A stretch of DNA of 64,000 bases. It comes from Anaeromyxobacter terrae (lineage in GTDB: Bacteria; Myxococcota; Myxococcia; Myxococcales; Anaeromyxobacteraceae). This document shows, piece after piece, positions 24,658 through 32,995 of the stretch (its first letter is position 1; each line of letters begins with the position of its first letter). A model generated the notes under the pieces. It saw only the letters and a program-made list of their open reading frames with translations. It had not been told where the DNA came from and did not search any database. The stretch covers positions 1 to 64,000 of the forward strand of contig NZ_JALCYY010000018.1 in the NCBI RefSeq assembly GCF_022690685.1, given 5' to 3'. A program made the position numbers and the translations under genes.

Positions 24658-25359
24658 ATGGACGCGCTCACGGACCGGCAGCTCGAAGTGCTCCGCTTCA
24701 TCGCCCGGCAGATCGAGGACTGCGGCTACCCCCCGACCATCCGCGAGATCGGCGAGGCCCTCGACATCCGCTCGACGAACGGCGTCAACGACCACCTGAA
24801 GGCGCTCGAGCGCAAGGGCTACCTCACCCGCGACCCGGTGAAGTCCCGCGCCCTCATCCCGACGCCGCAGGGGCGCGAGACGCTCGGCGGCAACGGCGGC
24901 GCGCGCACGTCGAACGTGGTCCCCTTCACCCGCACCCCCGCCCCTGCCCTGAAGCCGATGGGCCGGCTCGTCGAGATCCCGATCATCGGCCGCGTCGCCG
25001 CCGGTCAGCCGATCCTGGCGCAGGAGCGCGTCGAGGACACGGTGCAGGTGGACTCGTTCCTGCTCGGCACGAACAAGAAGGTCTACGGCCTGCGCGTGCA
25101 GGGCGACTCGATGATCGGCGACGGGATCCTCCCCGGCGACTACATCTTCGTGAAGAAGCAGCTCCACGCCGAGGATGGGGAGATCGTGGTCGCCATGATC
25201 GACGAGGAGGCGACCGTGAAGCGCGTCTACTTCGAGGGCGACCGCGTGAGGTTCCAGCCTTCGAACCCGCGGATGGCGCCCATCTACGTGCGCGCCTCCG
25301 ACTTCCGCACGACGATGATCCTGGGCGTCGTGGTGGGCGTCTACCGCAAGCTCGGCTGA
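24658..25359 (+). CDS. lexA: SOS-response repressor LexA
   Basis: Self-cleaving repressor of DNA-damage genes. AGGAGG lies 4 bases before the ATG. The winged-helix DNA-binding domain spans about 1-65 ([11 protein letters not shown] as the first part of the HTH). The cleavage site is Ala115-Gly116 in RVAAGQP; the catalytic Ser151 is in QGDSMIG and Lys188 in ATVKRV. At 233 residues it is longer than E. coli LexA (202), owing to a Thr/Pro linker of about 30 residues between domains. A candidate operator lies just upstream, so autoregulation is likely. Confidence 0.96.
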
Positions 25360-25543
25360 GCGCAGGCCGGGCGCCCGCCTGACCACGCGTTCATCAGCGC
25401 GTCACGCCGCGTAGGCAACCTGTTTGCGGCCCACGTGGTGCTCCGCGGGTCGGCTTACCTCCCCCCACCTCTGCGCCTATCTTGCCGCTGAGTCCGGACC
25501 GGATTCCCGGCCGGAGATTCGATTCGTAGGGAGGGAGGCGAGG

Positions 25544-25783
25544 ATGGCGAAGGTGAACCCCCGGCTCGACGCGGCGCGGACGGCGTACCGGGAGGCCCTC
25601 GAGGCGGCCCGTGCGACCCCGTCCGCGGAGGCGTGGGCCCGGCTGCTCGCAGCGGGGAAGGAGCTCTCGGCGGCAGCGGAGCCGCCGCCGCGGAGCCGGC
25701 GGGGCCGGAAGCCCGCGGTCCCCGCGGTGGACGAGCCGCCCGGGCCGACCCCGGATCTGCAGAACCTGGAAGGCGCGGAGTAG
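25544..25783 (+). CDS. Small hypothetical protein
   Basis: The ATG at 25544 follows the purine-rich GGGAGGGAGGCGAGG and gives 79 residues. The N-terminal half is one or two amphipathic helices rich in Ala/Arg/Glu; the middle is basic (RSRRGRKP) and the end is acidic and Pro-rich. I do not recognise the family. The strong ribosome-binding site and strong third-position GC bias support a real gene. It is convergent with the gene at 25851 and shares a hairpin terminator with it. Confidence 0.65.
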   Translation: MAKVNPRLDAARTAYREALEAARATPSAEAWARLLAAGKELSAAAEPPPRSRRGRKPAVPAVDEPPGPTPDLQNLEGAE

Positions 25784-25796
25784 CGCCACGTGCCGT

Positions 25797-25849
25797 GAGG
25801 GGCGCCGGGTGCGGCGGGCCACGGCTCGCGGTGCCCGGCGCCTCTTCTC
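25797..25849. terminator. Hairpin between convergent genes
   Basis: GAGGGGCGCCGGG (25797-25809) pairs with CCCGGCGCCTCTTC (25834-25847) with one mismatch around a 24-base loop. It lies between two convergent stop codons, so it may serve both strands. A U-tract is weak or absent. Confidence 0.5.
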
Positions 25850-25850
25850 G

Positions 25851-27173
25851 TCAGGAGCGAGTCTTCGCCTGGCGCACGTAGCGATCGAGGTCCTCGCGGT
25901 CGATGAGCGAGAGCACCTCGATCGCGTTCTGCCTCTCCCCCCGCCGGTACAGGAGCCGCACGTCGGTCGCGACGCGCACCCGGTAGTAGCCCGGGAGCCC
26001 CTCGAGCGGGAGCGCCCGCAGGCTGGGGTGACGGTGATCCTGCGCGAGCAGGTTGGCCTGCTTGAAGGCGGCGCGCTGGATGCGCCGATCCCAGCCCTCG
26101 AGGGAGTCGTAGAACTCGCGGGTGTACACCGGCATGAGCCACGAGGCCGGCGCTTCCTCGAGCTCCTCGGCGCCCTCCGCCGCCGCGGAGACCTGGCCCG
26201 ACGGCGGCCGCTCCGCCTCCGCCCGCGCGCGCGCCTCTCGGAGCGCGGCCTCGAGCTCTCGCTCCCGCTCCTCCTGCCGCGCGAGCTTCGCCTCGAGCGC
26301 CGCGGCGCGCGCCTCGAGCTCCCGCGCCGCGGCGCGGGCCCTCTGCGCCTCCGCCGCCGCGTCGGTGGCGCGCACCGCGGCGAGCTCGGTGTCGGACCGC
26401 TCTCGCGCGCGCTGCGCGGCCTCCATCGCCTCCCGCGCGCGCGCCGCGTCGTCGACCGCCTGCGCCGCCCGGGCGCGGGCGTCCTTGAGCCACTCCTGGA
26501 GCTTGTCGCGCTGCTCCTCCGCCTTCTTCCGCCCCGACTCGACGCGCGCCCGCGCCTCGGTGAGCTCCTTCTCGAGCGTCGCGACCCGCGCGGCGAGGTC
26601 CGGGCCTTCCTCGCGCGGCGCGGCCTTCGCCGCCCCGCGCCCGGCCGCCTCGGGGAGGGGGCCGTAGTACTCCTTCACGAGCTCGTCGAGGAGCGGCGCC
26701 GCGCGCGCGCGGACGTCCGCGGCGGGATCGGCGAGGACGCGCCAGAGCGCGAGCGTGAGGCCGTGGTCCGAGGCGCCGGTGGTGAGGAGATCGTCGGCCG
26801 CGATCGCGTCGAGCGGCGTCCGGGCGAGCGGCGGCGCGCCGAACGCCTTGCGGAGCGCGTCGAGCACCCGGGCCCGTGCCTCCGGGCGAGCGCGGATCTC
26901 GTCGGCGAGCACGTCGCTCCGCTCCACGTCCGAGAGCGCCTCGGTGCGGAACCCGGGCACGGACAGTCCGAGCTCCTTCACGAGCGCGCGCGTCTCCTCC
27001 GGGAGGAGCGCGACGTAGAGGAACACGGAGAGCGCGTCGCGCGACAGCTCCTCGAGCGGCGCGTCGCCGCCCGGGTCCGGGAGCCCGGGCGCCTTCCGGC
27101 TGGGCGGCGCGCGCCTCCGCGCCGGCGCGGCGTCGCCCTTCTTGGCCTTGCCGCTCGCCTTCCGCGTCGTCAC
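25851..27173 (-). CDS. Coiled-coil protein with C-terminal RelE/ParE-like toxin-fold domain
   Basis: A 440-residue protein from a GTG start. Residues 1-30 are a basic tail, about 35-175 are helical and conserved-looking, about 185-325 are a long Ala/Arg/Glu coiled coil, and about 345-440 match the RelE/ParE/HigB fold. The last part runs FYDSLEGWDRRIQRAAF, then HPSLRALPLEGLPGYYRVRV, DVRLLYRR and LIDREDLDRYV, which are the strand and Arg pattern of RelE-family mRNA interferases and gyrase poisons. Free RelE toxins are about 90 residues and have an antitoxin gene next to them; here none is seen. It begins 6 bases after the preceding gene and closes a four-gene minus-strand set. Function is unknown. 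Confidence 0.75.
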   Translation of the reverse strand: MTTRKASGKAKKGDAAPARRRAPPSRKAPGLPDPGGDAPLEELSRDALSVFLYVALLPEETRALVKELGLSVPGFRTEALSDVERSDVLADEIRARPEARARVLDALRKAFGAPPLARTPLDAIAADDLLTTGASDHGLTLALWRVLADPAADVRARAAPLLDELVKEYYGPLPEAAGRGAAKAAPREEGPDLAARVATLEKELTEARARVESGRKKAEEQRDKLQEWLKDARARAAQAVDDAARAREAMEAAQRARERSDTELAAVRATDAAAEAQRARAAARELEARAAALEAKLARQEERERELEAALREARARAEAERPPSGQVSAAAEGAEELEEAPASWLMPVYTREFYDSLEGWDRRIQRAAFKQANLLAQDHRHPSLRALPLEGLPGYYRVRVATDVRLLYRRGERQNAIEVLSLIDREDLDRYVRQAKTRS

Positions 27174-27179
27174 GGGGCC

Positions 27180-28097
27180 CTACGGCGCGGGCGCCGCCGC
27201 CTCGCGCACCTCCGCCTGGAAGGTGGCGCCGGGCGGGAGCTTCCAGGAGTCCGGGACCGGGATCTGCGCCTGGAAGGTGGCGGGCCGGACGGCGCCGCTC
27301 GCGCCGCGGACGTCGGTCTGGATCTCGAGCTGGACGGTCGCGGCCTCGCGCGGGAGGAGCTCCACCCACCAGGTGCCGAAGAGCGCGCCGGGCGGGAAGT
27401 CGTCCTGGAACCGCTCGGGGTCGCTGAGCTTCTGGTACGGCTCCCCGCCCCCGCTCATCTCGCCGTAGGGCTTGCCGGCCGCGTCGAGGAAGTGGAAGGC
27501 GATGCGCCGGAACGCGACGGGCACGACGCTCCGCACGACGGTGCGCTCCCCGCCCCGCTCCCGCTCGAGGAACCGGGGGCTGCCCCAGAGCGCGAAGTCG
27601 ATGCGGAGCCCGGGTGAGCCGCCCTCCGGAGGCGTCCCCGGCTCGACGGCGAGGAGATCGAGGCGGAACCCCTCGGCGATCATCGACTGGACCGGCGCGT
27701 AGCGGCCCTCGCGCAGCAGCGCGAGCCGGCCGTCGGCGTACTTCTGGAAGTCCTCCAGCTGGGTCCGATCCTTCTCCTCGAGCTTCCCCTTGCGATCCGC
27801 GGCGGCCGCCTGGACGCCGGTCGAGCGCGCCGGCTCGCCCGGATGGCGGTTCCGGATCGCCTGCAGCTCGTCGAAGTACCAGCGCGACAGGGCCGCGACC
27901 TCGTCGCGCCACTCCGGCAGCCGGTCGGCGGGGATCGCGCGCGCCGCGCCCGCACGCTCCGAGAAGTCGCGCTTCAGCCGGGCGCGCTCGAGCCGGGCCT
28001 CGTAGGCGTCGGCCTTCTCGCGGGAGCCGGTGAGCAGGAAGGCGATCGCGAGCACGGCGAGCCCGATCGGCACCGCGACGAGGAAGAGCTTCTTCAT
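27180..28097 (-). CDS. Membrane-anchored protein of unknown family
   Basis: A 305-residue protein with one N-terminal transmembrane segment (LFLVAVPIGLAVLAIAFLL, residues 4-22) and no lipobox, so probably a signal anchor with the rest in the periplasm. A helical, charged region (about 25-140) contains WRDEVAALSRWYFDELQ. A beta-rich part follows, with RIDFALWGSPRF and FGTWWVELLPRE. No catalytic motif is recognised. It starts 5 bases after the metallophosphoesterase gene and ends 6 bases before the RelE-like fusion gene, so it belongs to that operon. Confidence 0.7.
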   Translation of the reverse strand: MKKLFLVAVPIGLAVLAIAFLLTGSREKADAYEARLERARLKRDFSERAGAARAIPADRLPEWRDEVAALSRWYFDELQAIRNRHPGEPARSTGVQAAAADRKGKLEEKDRTQLEDFQKYADGRLALLREGRYAPVQSMIAEGFRLDLLAVEPGTPPEGGSPGLRIDFALWGSPRFLERERGGERTVVRSVVPVAFRRIAFHFLDAAGKPYGEMSGGGEPYQKLSDPERFQDDFPPGALFGTWWVELLPREAATVQLEIQTDVRGASGAVRPATFQAQIPVPDSWKLPPGATFQAEVREAAAPAP

Positions 28098-28102
28098 GGG
28101 AT

Positions 28103-28942
28103 TCACTCCGAGCCGGAGACGAGCGCCTCGACGCTGCGCACCCCGGTACGATCGATCTCGTACACGTAGGCGCGCGCGCGCCGGACCGGCTCGTCCGCGA
28201 CGCGCGAGGCAGAGCCCGCGCAGAGGACCGGCGTCGCGCCGGCGGCGCCGGGCAGGTCGACCCGGAACGCGGTGTGACGGTGGCCGTGCAGCACGGCTGC
28301 CACCGGAAGGTCTGCGACGAGCCGGACGACCTGGTCGGCGTCCGCGAGCGGCATCCGGGCGACGTGGACGTCGGATGGGACGCGCTCGGGTGGGAGGACG
28401 ACGTGGTGGTGGAACGCGAGCACGACGGCGCGCCCGAGCTTCGCGTGCTCGCGGACGATCTCGCGCGCCGCGCGGAGCTGGTCGCCGCCGATGCGGCCGG
28501 GCGTCGTCCACGGGTCCTCGCCCCACCGCGCGCTGTCGAGCGCGACGAGCACCGCCTCGTCCCCGAGCGGCACGACGTGCGGGTAGCTCGGCACGGCCTT
28601 CTTCATGCCGAGGCCGTCCGGGCCGAGCGCCCGCAGGAACCGGGCGGTCTCGACGGAGTCCTCCGTCCAGAGATCGTGGTTGCCAGGGACGACCGTCAGC
28701 TTGCGCGCCTCCGCGAACGGGCGGAGCAGGTCGGCGGCCCGCTCGAACTCGCGGGGCTCGCCCGAGAACGTCAGGTCGCCGGTGACGACGAGGTGGTCGA
28801 CGCCGATCTCGCGGAGGGCGTCGAGCAGCCCCTTCGCGAGGCGAGCGGAGTGCTTCTCGCAGTCCCGGGCCGAGAAGCCGTTGCGGGGATAGCGGCTTCG
28901 GTCGGAGACGTGGAGATCGCTGATGTGGCCGAGTCGGACGAT
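28103..28942 (-). CDS. Calcineurin-like metallophosphoesterase with apparent ATC start
   Basis: The full motif set of a dinuclear metallophosphoesterase is present: ISDLH at the N-terminus, VVTGDLTFSGEP (about 46-57), VVPGNHDLW (about 81-89), AFHHH and LHGHRH. Substrate is unknown; relatives include the cAMP and UDP-diacylglucosamine hydrolases. Reading back from the motifs reaches an in-frame TGA with no ATG, GTG or TTG on the way. The best candidate is ATC at 28942 (giving MVRLGHISDLH), with GGGAGG 4 bases upstream. The first ATG is at 28606, after the GNHD motif, and would remove half the active site. It lies 46 bases past the upstream gene. Confidence 0.75.
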   Translation of the reverse strand: MVRLGHISDLHVSDRSRYPRNGFSARDCEKHSARLAKGLLDALREIGVDHLVVTGDLTFSGEPREFERAADLLRPFAEARKLTVVPGNHDLWTEDSVETARFLRALGPDGLGMKKAVPSYPHVVPLGDEAVLVALDSARWGEDPWTTPGRIGGDQLRAAREIVREHAKLGRAVVLAFHHHVVLPPERVPSDVHVARMPLADADQVVRLVADLPVAAVLHGHRHTAFRVDLPGAAGATPVLCAGSASRVADEPVRRARAYVYEIDRTGVRSVEALVSGSE

Positions 28943-28988
28943 GCGGCCTCCCGGGGCGGCGGCGATGCTATCTCAGCCCCGGCCCAGG

Positions 28989-30095
28989 TCAAACCTGCGG
29001 CGCGTCCGGCGTCACCGCGTCCGCGGCGCGCGGCAGGAGGATGCGCAGCGTCCTCCCGCGGCCCGGCACCGCCTCGTCCTCCACCTGGCCGCCGTGCGGC
29101 GCGACGAGCGCGCGCGCGACCGCCGCCGCGCCGCCGTCGTCCGCCGCGGCGCCGCCCGCGATCTCCACCACCGCGGCTGCGCCACGTCGCCCGACACTCA
29201 CCGCGATCTCCCCACCTCGGCCCGCGCCCGCGCCGACGGCGCGGAGCGCCTCGCGGATCGCCGCCCGCAGCGGCCGGTCGTCCCCCATCGCGAGCGCCGG
29301 CTCGAGCGCGCTCCGCACGCGCACGCCCGGCGGCGGCGCCCACGCCGCGAGCAGATCCGCCACCAGCGGCGCGAGCTCGAGCGCGCGCGGCGTGCCGGCG
29401 GCCTTCTCCGCCGCGTCGTGCAGCGTCCCCACGCGGCGCGCGGCCTCCTCCAGCGCCTCGTCGAGCAGCGAGAGCTGCTTGGCGGCGCGCGGCGGGAGCG
29501 GCGGCGCGAGGAGACGCAGATAGGAGGCGGCGGTGGCGGCGCGCGCGATGGGCGCCCTCACGCACGCGGCGGCTCCGGCCAGCACGTCGCCGAGCCGCGC
29601 CGGCGCGGGCCCGGTCGCGGGCCTCGACGCGGGCAAGGGCGGCGGCGCCGCGCGCGCCGGCTCCGCCCGGAGGACCACGACATCCACCGTGGGTGCATCC
29701 GACACGCGGACGAGCGCGGCGGTCGCCCGGACGCCGGTGCGCAGCGAGACCGCCCCGGACGTGGCGTCCGCCCGCCGGAGCCCGTGCCGCAGGACGGCGA
29801 GCGCCTCGGCGACGGTCGCGAGGTCCTTGCCCGCGAGCGGCGCCGCGTCCGAGCCCGCGAGCCGCTCCGCCGCCGCATTGGCGCGGGTGATGCGCCCGTC
29901 CCGGCCGACCACGAGGACGCCGTCCCCGAGCCGCTCGAGCGCGCCCGCGACGAGCCGCTCCGCCGCCTCGGGCAGCCCCGCGCGTCGCCTCGCGGCGAGC
30001 GCGCGCAGCGCTGCCACGGCGGCGACGGCGAGCGCGGCGCCTGCCAGGAGCGCGAGCGCATGCGCACCGGGCAACACGGCGCCCAAGGTGTCCAC
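28989..30095 (-). CDS. Degenerate PAS / histidine-kinase-like membrane protein
   Basis: A GTG start at 30095 gives 368 residues: one transmembrane helix (about 10-32), a PAS domain (about 43-140) with GVLVVGRDGRITRANAAAERL, an Ala-rich dimerisation-like region, and a HATPase-like end with HGGQVEDEAVPGRGRTLRI. At the H-box, where kinases have HELRTPL, this protein has ACVRAPI, so the phospho-acceptor His is Ala167. The N-box Asn and the DxG box are also lost. It is therefore probably a non-catalytic sensor or scaffold. The frame is open up to an ATG at 30266, and that extension contains a CGSC..C Cys cluster; the start is uncertain. It heads the four-gene operon. Confidence 0.65.
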   Translation of the reverse strand: MDTLGAVLPGAHALALLAGAALAVAAVAALRALAARRRAGLPEAAERLVAGALERLGDGVLVVGRDGRITRANAAAERLAGSDAAPLAGKDLATVAEALAVLRHGLRRADATSGAVSLRTGVRATAALVRVSDAPTVDVVVLRAEPARAAPPPLPASRPATGPAPARLGDVLAGAAACVRAPIARAATAASYLRLLAPPLPPRAAKQLSLLDEALEEAARRVGTLHDAAEKAAGTPRALELAPLVADLLAAWAPPPGVRVRSALEPALAMGDDRPLRAAIREALRAVGAGAGRGGEIAVSVGRRGAAAVVEIAGGAAADDGGAAAVARALVAPHGGQVEDEAVPGRGRTLRILLPRAADAVTPDAPQV

Positions 30096-30446
30096 CCGCT
30101 TGCTCTCGCGGAAGCAGTCCTTATGCAGAGGGCATGATCCGCAGACACGCGTGGTCCCCGGCGGAGGGTCCCGGCGCCGCCCCCCAGCAGATCTCCCACC
30201 GCGCCGGATACGTCTCCGGGAGCGGAGACGACGGGCGAATCCCGGGGTCCGGGCTGTGGGCCCCATCGAACGGTCCGGCTCGAACCGACCCGGGCGGAGC
30301 CGGGGGCGAACCCGACGGACGCACGGTGCCGCGCCCCGGTCGTACCGCCCTCAACGAGGACTGACGCCTCGGCAGCAGGGGCCGCAGGGTGCCGCTGCTG
30401 CTCGGCACGCCGCACCCGTAACGCCCGACAGGTCAAACGCTTTTCG
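30096..30446. other. Intergenic region between divergent genes
   Basis: This 350-base stretch upstream of lon and of the divergent kinase-like gene has no gene I can support. Short frames on both strands are Arg/Pro/Gly-rich without domains. The part nearest 30266 may instead be coding for a longer N-terminus of the kinase-like protein. Confidence 0.4.
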
Positions 30447-30475
30447 TTGATATCCGCTGCTCGCGCGGGTATCCC
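30447..30475 (+). promoter_or_regulatory. Sigma70-like promoter for lon
   Basis: TTGATA (30447-30452) and TATCCC (30470-30475) are separated by 17 bases and lie 30 bases before the lon ATG. AAGGAGA at 30494-30500 is the ribosome-binding site. No good heat-shock sigma32 consensus is visible. Confidence 0.45.
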
Positions 30476-30505
30476 ATCCCATCCGAATTCGGCAAGGAGA
30501 CGGCG

Positions 30506-32995
<2,490 letters not shown>

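What the first reader, a model, noticed from the sequence alone, without database searches (positions are those of the whole stretch)
25851..30095. Four-gene cluster: degenerate sensor kinase, metallophosphoesterase, anchored protein and coiled-coil RelE-like fusion
The four minus-strand genes are spaced 46, 5 and 6 bases apart, so they look like one transcript. The kinase-like protein lacks its phospho-acceptor, the third gene is of unknown family, and the last carries a toxin-fold domain. I know of no described system with this make-up. A membrane-linked sensing or defence module is an inference.
Basis: partly seen in the sequence, partly recalled or inferred. Interest (0 to 1): 0.75.

Follow-up and report, generated by a model that had tools for sequence, protein, structure and literature searches.

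The report
Lone RelE nuclease operon in Anaeromyxobacter
What looked like one four-gene system is really a three-gene operon with its own promoter, plus an optional upstream gene; its key protein is a conserved mRNA-cutting "toxin" domain tethered to a long rod and lacking any antitoxin gene, and one of its genes starts with the very rare start codon ATC.

Summary
The four ORFs are real and correctly placed (Anaeromyxobacter, between lon and lexA; gaps 46, 5 and 6 bases), but they are not one conserved unit. A promoter, TTGACC-N16-TAGCAT at 28992-28965, overlaps the stop of the kinase-like gene. It is the only such site in the window and recurs upstream of the second gene in 15 of 17 family loci, including genera without gene 1. 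The operon is therefore metallophosphoesterase (MPE), membrane protein (G3) and coiled-coil-RelE (CCR). Gene 1 is an optional PAS pseudokinase. G3 and CCR occur apart in other families of the order.

The striking part is CCR: a HEAT-like helical domain, a 129-residue coil and a RelE nuclease domain. Its equivalents of RelE R61 and R81 are invariant (Y87: Y in 28, W or F in 4 of 32), the domain is 77% identical across families, it is inherited vertically, and no antitoxin gene accompanies it. The MPE keeps every catalytic motif and starts at ATC in 14 of 14 loci outside one genus.

Best explanation: a domesticated, tethered, ribosome-dependent mRNase beside a phosphodiesterase suited to 2',3'-cyclic phosphate ends. 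Fold, residues, promoter and start codon are sequence-supported; activities and coupling are inferred. A defence role is not supported.

The parts
28989..30095 (-). Gene 1: membrane-anchored PAS protein with a degenerate histidine-kinase-like C-terminus (pseudokinase); optional neighbour, not part of the conserved operon
   Evidence: Pfam PAS_4 6.5e-7; HisKA not matched, HATPase_c at best 0.06-0.19 in 2 of 7 homologues. Phospho-acceptor His replaced by Ala177 in 7 of 7. Present only in g1 and one g2 genome. dN/dS about 0.23-0.33.
28965..28992 (-). Promoter of the MPE-G3-CCR operon: TTGACC, 16 bases, TAGCAT; the -35 hexamer overlaps the stop codon of gene 1
   Evidence: Only hit of the pattern in the 64 kb window. 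The pattern has 14 hits in 1.65 Mb of the 60 fetched regions (both strands), and all 14 are accounted for by the 14 sites upstream of MPE. Independent scan finds this one site.
28947..28952 (-). Shine-Dalgarno sequence GGGAGG, 4 bases before the ATC start
   Evidence: A GGAG core stands at this distance in nearly all ATC loci although the flanking bases vary; L064 is the exception.
28103..28942 (-). Gene 2: metallophosphoesterase of the class III phosphodiesterase type, start codon ATC at 28942-28940
   Evidence: Pfam Metallophos 3.6e-12. DxH, GD, GNHD, H and GHxH all invariant in 17 homologues. ATC in 14 of 14 non-g4 loci; next canonical start in the window at codon 112, after the metal motifs.
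27180..28097 (-). Gene 3 (G3): bitopic membrane protein of an unnamed order-wide family; one N-terminal membrane helix, helical stalk, Ig-like beta sandwich
   Evidence: 123 of 145 genomes of the order, nearly always single copy. AlphaFold2 mean pLDDT 89.3. No specific PDB relative.
25851..27173 (-). Gene 4 (CCR): helical N-domain, coiled coil and RelE nuclease domain
   Evidence: AlphaFold2 mean pLDDT 84.6 with confident N-domain, coil and RelE domain; 32 homologues aligned; vertical tree.
26658..27065 (-). CCR N-domain, residues 37-172, all-helical, HEAT-like second half
   Evidence: Pfam HEAT in 12 of 31 homologues, best 8.6e-6; eight helices predicted.
26211..26597 (-). CCR coiled coil, residues 193-321, one unbroken helix
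   Evidence: the least conserved of the folded segments (34% mean pairwise identity).
25854..26141 (-). CCR RelE domain, residues 345-440, with R398, R400, R406, R426 and Y432 at the RelE K52, K54, R61, R81 and Y87 positions
   Evidence: 77% mean pairwise identity across families. Foldseek top hits all RelE/YoeB/YafQ-type toxins. VIA-align Z 11.3, rmsd 2.1 over 80-82 residues.
30506..32995 (+). lon protease gene, divergent syntenic flank
   Evidence: 89-98% identical and adjacent in the family loci where both ends are on the contig.
24658..25359 (+). lexA, convergent syntenic flank
   Evidence: 75-97% identical and adjacent in the family loci where both ends are on the contig.

Best explanation
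The locus is a vertically inherited Anaeromyxobacteraceae operon, MPE-G3-CCR, set between lon and lexA, read from a promoter just upstream of MPE, and preceded in some species by an unrelated, fast-evolving PAS pseudokinase. Its best-conserved product, CCR, is a domesticated RelE: a complete RelE-type nuclease domain held at the end of a long coiled coil on a HEAT-like helical platform. It most likely enters the ribosomal A site and cuts mRNA when the platform places or releases it; the fused part takes the restraining role that a separate antitoxin has in relBE (inferred). RelE cleavage leaves a 2',3'-cyclic phosphate that RelE itself does not open, and the MPE beside it has the full class III motif set with the GNHD histidine that determines 2',3'-cyclic phosphodiesterase activity. 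The MPE is therefore proposed to open these ends, or the 2',3'-cNMPs that follow (inferred). Expression is kept low by the ATC start codon (start shown by sequence, effect inferred). G3 is a periplasmic-facing membrane protein with its own order-wide role, carried in the operon but not needed by it, since g4 species lack it.
For: Promoter. Synteny and gene content. Tight, often overlapping MPE/G3/CCR spacing. RelE fold: including RelE on the 70S ribosome (4v7j, Z 9.6, 89 residues) and Cami1 (8phj, Z 9.7, 96 residues). Profile against PDB: only RelE chains, best E 0.03. R61 and R81 equivalents 32 of 32; Y87 equivalent Y in 28, W in 3, F in 1. RelE R61, R81 and Y87 are the critical residues and the product is a 2',3'-cyclic phosphate not hydrolysed further (PMC2807027). 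REL dN/dS about 0.02-0.07 against 0.14-0.37 for whole CCR. Tree follows families and genera. MPE motifs invariant; role of the GNH[D/E] histidine (PMC3407115). ATC start; precedent for conserved weak starts (PMC13009471).
Against: No activity was measured. Fold and residues do not prove catalysis: E. coli RelE has Lys where CCR has R398 and R400, although those lysines mattered little in vitro. MPE and CCR are linked in only one family, by common descent, so the link is weak evidence for joint function, and one genus (g3) keeps CCR without MPE. CCR is missing from most Myxococcaceae, so it is not essential in the order. G3 faces the periplasm by prediction and is hard to fit into an RNA pathway. 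The partner or signal of the N-domain is unknown.
Confidence: 0.5

Rival explanations
1. Four-gene membrane-linked sensing or defence module: the PAS pseudokinase senses, the MPE relays, G3 anchors, and CCR is the toxin effector that stops growth on infection.
For: Tandem order with short gaps. RelE domains are effectors in known defence systems such as Cami1 (PMC11229360). MPE has distant similarity to an anti-phage phosphoesterase model (79.6 bits, cut-off 420).
Against: Promoter inside the cluster; gene 1 and G3 absent in whole genera; G3 and CCR scattered elsewhere. Vertical tree. Single chromosomal copy between lon and lexA. No phage, plasmid or viral relatives. No PADLOC match to a system.
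Confidence: 0.07
2. CCR is a catalytically dead or non-nuclease RelE-fold protein that uses the fold to bind the ribosome or another target, for example as a structural or ribosome-hibernation factor.
For: Chromosomal fixation and long vertical descent are unusual for an active toxin, and the coiled coil suggests a scaffold. ParE-type members of the same superfamily are not RNases (PMC11980606). The best Pfam match of the domain is ParE_like, below cut-off.
Against: The residues that carry catalysis in RelE (R61, R81, Y87) are kept, which ParE-type gyrase inhibitors lack; PDB profile hits are RelE, not ParE.
Confidence: 0.3
3. Ordinary chance clustering: unrelated lineage genes accumulated between lon and lexA and are co-transcribed without shared function.
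For: Gene content varies by genus, G3 and CCR live apart elsewhere, and CCR alone remains between lon and lexA in g3.
Against: MPE-CCR order, overlapping or near-zero gene gaps and one conserved promoter are kept across five genera.
Confidence: 0.35
4. The MPE is really translated from an upstream or downstream canonical start, and the ATC start is an annotation illusion.
For: Some loci have canonical codons upstream in the open frame; ATC is the usual Ile codon in GC-rich DNA, so its identity alone says little.
Against: In the window and five other loci no canonical codon exists between the upstream stop and ATC. In eight of the nine that have one it lies beyond the promoter (in L061 and L064 by a degenerate or very close -10). 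Downstream starts would cut off the DxH metal motif. Shine-Dalgarno sequences point to ATC, and g4 species have TTG one codon away.
Confidence: 0.08

Closest known systems
E. coli RelE (relBE type II toxin)
   Same: BECR/RelE fold; R61 and R81 equivalents invariant and Y87 kept or conservatively replaced; profile hits only RelE in PDB
   Different: Fused to a HEAT-like domain and a 129-residue coiled coil; no antitoxin gene; single-copy, vertically inherited, extremely conserved
Cami1 (CARF-RelE effector of type III CRISPR)
   Same: RelE nuclease domain as C-terminal part of a larger regulated protein without a RelB-type antitoxin; structural match Z 9.7 over 96 residues; Cami1 cleaves mRNA at the A site (PMC11229360)
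   Different: No CARF domain (N-domain all-helical), no CRISPR genes among the flanks seen, long coiled coil instead of a ligand sensor
Multidomain BECR-fold toxins of Gerdes 2025 (PMC11980606), including fused toxin-antitoxins and ToxM
   Same: RelE/ParE-superfamily domain inside a multidomain protein
   Different: No antitoxin domain found and no membrane helix in CCR. That survey states that multidomain BECR proteins without an identifiable antitoxin were left out
Class III metallophosphodiesterases Rv0805, CpdA and Lmo2642
   Same: Complete DxH-GD-GNHD-H-GHxH signature; best PDB profile hit Lmo2642 5e-8, then Rv0805
   Different: Substrate unknown; ATC start; operon with CCR
Conserved non-AUG start genes: infC, cvfC1 and ccpN of Staphylococcus (PMC13009471)
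   Same: Non-canonical isoleucine-type start kept across a family with a good Shine-Dalgarno sequence
   Different: AUC instead of AUU or AUA; different lineage; no ribosome profiling here

Membership tests
RelE-type ribosome-dependent mRNase | RelE/BECR fold | tested here: met
   Foldseek E 2e-4 to 1e-3, prob 1.00; VIA-align Z up to 11.3
RelE-type ribosome-dependent mRNase | Catalytic Arg, Arg and Tyr (R61, R81, Y87) | tested here: met
   R406 and R426 in 32 of 32; Y432 is Y in 28, W in 3, F in 1; in E. coli Y87F kept activity (PMC2807027)
RelE-type ribosome-dependent mRNase | A-site mRNA cleavage on the ribosome | not testable with these tools
   Needs biochemistry
Type II toxin-antitoxin module relBE | Adjacent cognate antitoxin gene | tested here: not met
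   No conserved small partner gene beside CCR across the loci compared
Type II toxin-antitoxin module relBE | Mobile or patchy distribution | tested here: not met
   Tree follows taxonomy; single copy; no plasmid or phage hits
Cami1 | CARF sensor domain | tested here: not met
   N-domain all-helical, HEAT hits, no CARF hit
Cami1 | Type III CRISPR locus | tested here: not met
   Family loci are flanked by lon and lexA; cas genes were not searched genome-wide
Class III metallophosphodiesterase | D-x-H, GD, GNH[D/E], H, GHxH motifs | tested here: met
   All invariant in 17 sequences
Class III metallophosphodiesterase | Hydrolysis of cyclic nucleotides | not testable with these tools
   Needs biochemistry
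Sensor histidine kinase (gene 1) | Phospho-acceptor His in the DHp helix | tested here: not met
   Ala177 in 7 of 7 homologues
Sensor histidine kinase (gene 1) | HATPase_c domain | tested here: not met
   No hit in P0001; E 0.06-0.19 in 2 of 7 homologues, far below cut-off; N and G1 boxes not seen, GRG remnant kept
Sensor histidine kinase (gene 1) | PAS sensor domain | tested here: met
   PAS_4 6.5e-7
Known anti-phage defence system | Match to a defence model above its cut-off | tested here: not met
   PADLOC hits only coiled-coil or weak MPE matches; NCBIfam DS9_1 79.6 bits of 420

The most novel reading that the evidence does not exclude
CCR founds a class of domesticated, antitoxin-free RelE nucleases that act as regulated housekeeping mRNA-cutting factors on the ribosome. 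In Anaeromyxobacteraceae CCR is operonically paired with a cyclic-phosphate-opening phosphodiesterase, and the output of the operon is throttled by a conserved AUC start codon.
Probability: 0.22. Interest if true: 0.78.

Novelty: new variant of a known kind. Interest (0 to 1): 0.5.

Why it matters
RelE domains are known as toxins kept in check by antitoxins, or as triggered immune effectors. A RelE with its catalytic residues kept across most families of an order, inherited vertically, without an antitoxin gene and built into a long scaffold, suggests that this nuclease has been tamed for routine use, and it gives a direct test of what a tamed A-site nuclease does. The conserved ATC start across several genera is an unusual case of a non-AUG start outside infC, and gene finders that allow only ATG, GTG and TTG would truncate or miss this MPE.

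Tried and rejected
Four-gene unit: rejected on promoter, gene content and scatter. Defence system: rejected for lack of model matches and mobile-element links. EAD or death-like N-domain: two weak single-member Pfam hits (EAD2 0.003, EAD7 0.005) on different stretches, so not pursued. G3 fold: Foldseek and VIA-align gave only generic Ig-like sandwiches (best CrdA Z 8.0, 101 residues), so no function can be read from it. The small + strand ORF between lexA and CCR as an antitoxin: judged unlikely because in g5 and g6 loci only 15-40 bases separate lexA and CCR, leaving no room for it. infC as an in-genome ATC example: its frame has an ATG with a Shine-Dalgarno sequence only 2 bases away and an ATC two codons further in, undecided. 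Whole-protein searches of the order with the coiled-coil protein and with gene 1 failed for technical reasons, so the RelE domain was used for CCR and gene 1 was judged from synteny. One literature search was swamped by the word 'release'.
Full report
Setting. The window comes from an Anaeromyxobacter; the closest named relative found is A. soli (94% identity over CCR). The four genes lie on the minus strand between lon (plus, 30506-32995) and lexA (plus, about 24658-25359).

Are they one unit? No. (a) Across 17 family loci plus a g3 locus, lon and lexA flank CCR wherever both ends are on the contig. MPE is next to CCR in genera g1, g2, g4, g5 and g6; the gene-1 pseudokinase is detected only in g1 and one g2 genome; G3 is absent in g4; in g3 only CCR remains. 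(b) The pattern TTGAC[ACG]-N16/17-TAGCAT occurs once in 64 kb, at 28992-28965, where the -35 hexamer overlaps the stop codon of gene 1. An independent consensus scan gives the same single site in 25300-30600, with 0.0 expected. The pattern stands upstream of MPE in 15 of 17 loci, counting the window, and in a degenerate form in the other two. In 60 fetched regions (1.65 Mb counting both strands) the pattern has 14 hits in all, and all 14 are these MPE sites. Genera without gene 1 have it too. (c) MPE, G3 and CCR are spaced tightly, often overlapping by 1 or 4 bases between G3 and CCR. So the operon is MPE-G3-CCR. Read-through from gene 1 is possible but not needed. (d) Outside the family, G3 (123 of 145 genomes) and CCR are found apart. 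The 23 sampled G3 loci there show no other cluster gene, and the 15 sampled CCR loci show neither MPE, G3 nor gene 1.

Gene 1. A membrane helix, a PAS domain (PAS_4 6.5e-7) and a kinase-like tail. In all 7 homologues the residue at the His position is Ala177, five before the invariant Pro182. N and G1 boxes are not seen; a GRG remnant of G2 stays. HATPase_c reaches only E 0.06-0.19 in two homologues. It diverges fast (39-50% identity outside its nearest relatives) under weak purifying selection (dN/dS 0.23-0.33). Pseudokinase is a fair name; a partner was not found.

MPE. All class III phosphodiesterase motifs (DxH, GD, GNHD, H, GHxH) are invariant in 17 sequences. PDB relatives are Lmo2642 (5e-8) and Rv0805. 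The GNH[D/E] histidine determines 2',3'-cyclic nucleotide phosphodiesterase activity in CthPnkp, Rv0805 and a YfcE mutant (PMC3407115).

ATC start. In the window the MPE frame has no ATG, GTG or TTG between the upstream stop, 10 codons away, and codon 112; the metal-binding DxH motif is at codons 9-11. A GGGAGG Shine-Dalgarno sequence ends 4 bases before ATC. The same ATC, mostly with a similar Shine-Dalgarno sequence, stands in 14 of 14 loci of g1, g2, g5 and g6; the three g4 loci have TTG one codon later. Six loci, the window included, have no canonical start upstream at all. In eight others the nearest one lies upstream of the promoter, hence outside the predicted mRNA (for L061 this relies on a degenerate promoter). 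L064, with a -10 site ending about 8 bases before ATC and no Shine-Dalgarno sequence, is an outlier. Conserved non-AUG starts with strong Shine-Dalgarno sequences that lower expression and are modulated by IF3 are described for Staphylococcus (PMC13009471). The lowering effect here is inferred.

G3. Single N-terminal membrane helix, helical stalk and Ig-like sandwich at mean pLDDT 89.3. Structural matches are generic. It is an unnamed family, nearly always single copy, in the order. Its periplasmic orientation is inferred from the Lys/Arg-rich N-terminus.

CCR. AlphaFold2 (mean pLDDT 84.6) gives an N-domain of eight helices (about 45-170), one helix 193-321, and a RelE fold 345-440. The second half of the N-domain matches HEAT in 12 of 31 homologues, best 8.6e-6. 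The C-domain matches RelE-superfamily toxins only, with VIA-align Z 11.3 at best, Z 9.6 (89 residues) to RelE on the 70S ribosome and Z 9.7 (96 residues) to Cami1. A sequence profile finds only RelE in PDB, weakly (E 0.03). Aligned on that match, RelE K52, K54, R61, R81 and Y87 correspond to R398, R400, R406, R426 and Y432. The four Arg are invariant in 32 sequences; Y432 is Y in 28, W in 3 and F in 1. In E. coli RelE, R61, R81 and Y87 are the critical residues, Y87F and the lysine mutants kept activity, and the product is a 2',3'-cyclic phosphate that RelE does not open further (PMC2807027). Mean pairwise identity is 77% in the RelE domain, 42% in the N-domain and 34% in the coil; REL dN/dS is about 0.02-0.07. 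The tree recovers families and genera, with f7 inside f6, and no phage, plasmid or viral relative was found. No conserved small gene sits beside it. CCR is therefore a vertically inherited, probably active RelE without a dedicated antitoxin gene.

Mechanism. Shown by sequence or model: the operon, promoter, start codon, RelE fold and residues, MPE motifs and vertical descent. Inferred from known families: A-site mRNA cleavage by CCR and 2',3'-cyclic phosphodiesterase activity of MPE. Inferred only: control of the nuclease by the N-domain and coil, and coupling of the two activities. Cami1 is a precedent for a RelE domain governed by a fused domain instead of an antitoxin (PMC11229360).

Relation to the literature. 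The 2025 survey of multidomain RelE/ParE proteins left out those without an identifiable antitoxin (PMC11980606), so CCR falls in a stated gap. I found no description of it; the library is open-access only, so an earlier mention cannot be excluded.

Limits. Taxonomic scope: 195 genomes of the phylum for the RelE domain and a close-relatives-only scan of the species genome collection; more distant phyla were not searched in depth. The N-domain was not folded alone. dN/dS values are simple pairwise NG86 estimates. The copy counts are of genomes, not independent events.

Noticed in passing
window 28940-28942 (-): MPE starts at ATC, kept in 14 of 14 loci of four genera with a Shine-Dalgarno sequence in nearly all; a gene finder limited to ATG, GTG and TTG would truncate this gene.
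   Followed up: yes
L141 1430-1480 (infC of the same genome): infC has GGAGGA only 2 bases before an ATG but 8 bases before an in-frame ATC two codons later, so the true infC start may also be ATC.
   Followed up: partly
window 27180-28097; L068-L090: G3 is an unnamed, nearly always single-copy membrane protein family in 123 of 145 genomes of the order, in varying gene neighbourhoods.
   Followed up: partly
window 25544-25783 (+): Small basic-tailed ORF (about 79 aa) convergent with CCR, between lexA and CCR; g5 and g6 loci have no room for it there.
   Followed up: partly
L138 4943-7018: A 691-residue protein of another class in the phylum carries a diverged RelE-like domain (31% identity) at its C-terminus, a different multidomain arrangement.
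   Followed up: no
L064 10515-11376: G3 of this g2 genome is split over two frames, and its MPE promoter ends about 8 bases before ATC with no Shine-Dalgarno sequence; assembly error or decay.
   Followed up: no
L065-L067 upstream of MPE: In g4 the -10 hexamer ends about 9-10 bases before the TTG start, so the MPE mRNA may be nearly leaderless.
   Followed up: no
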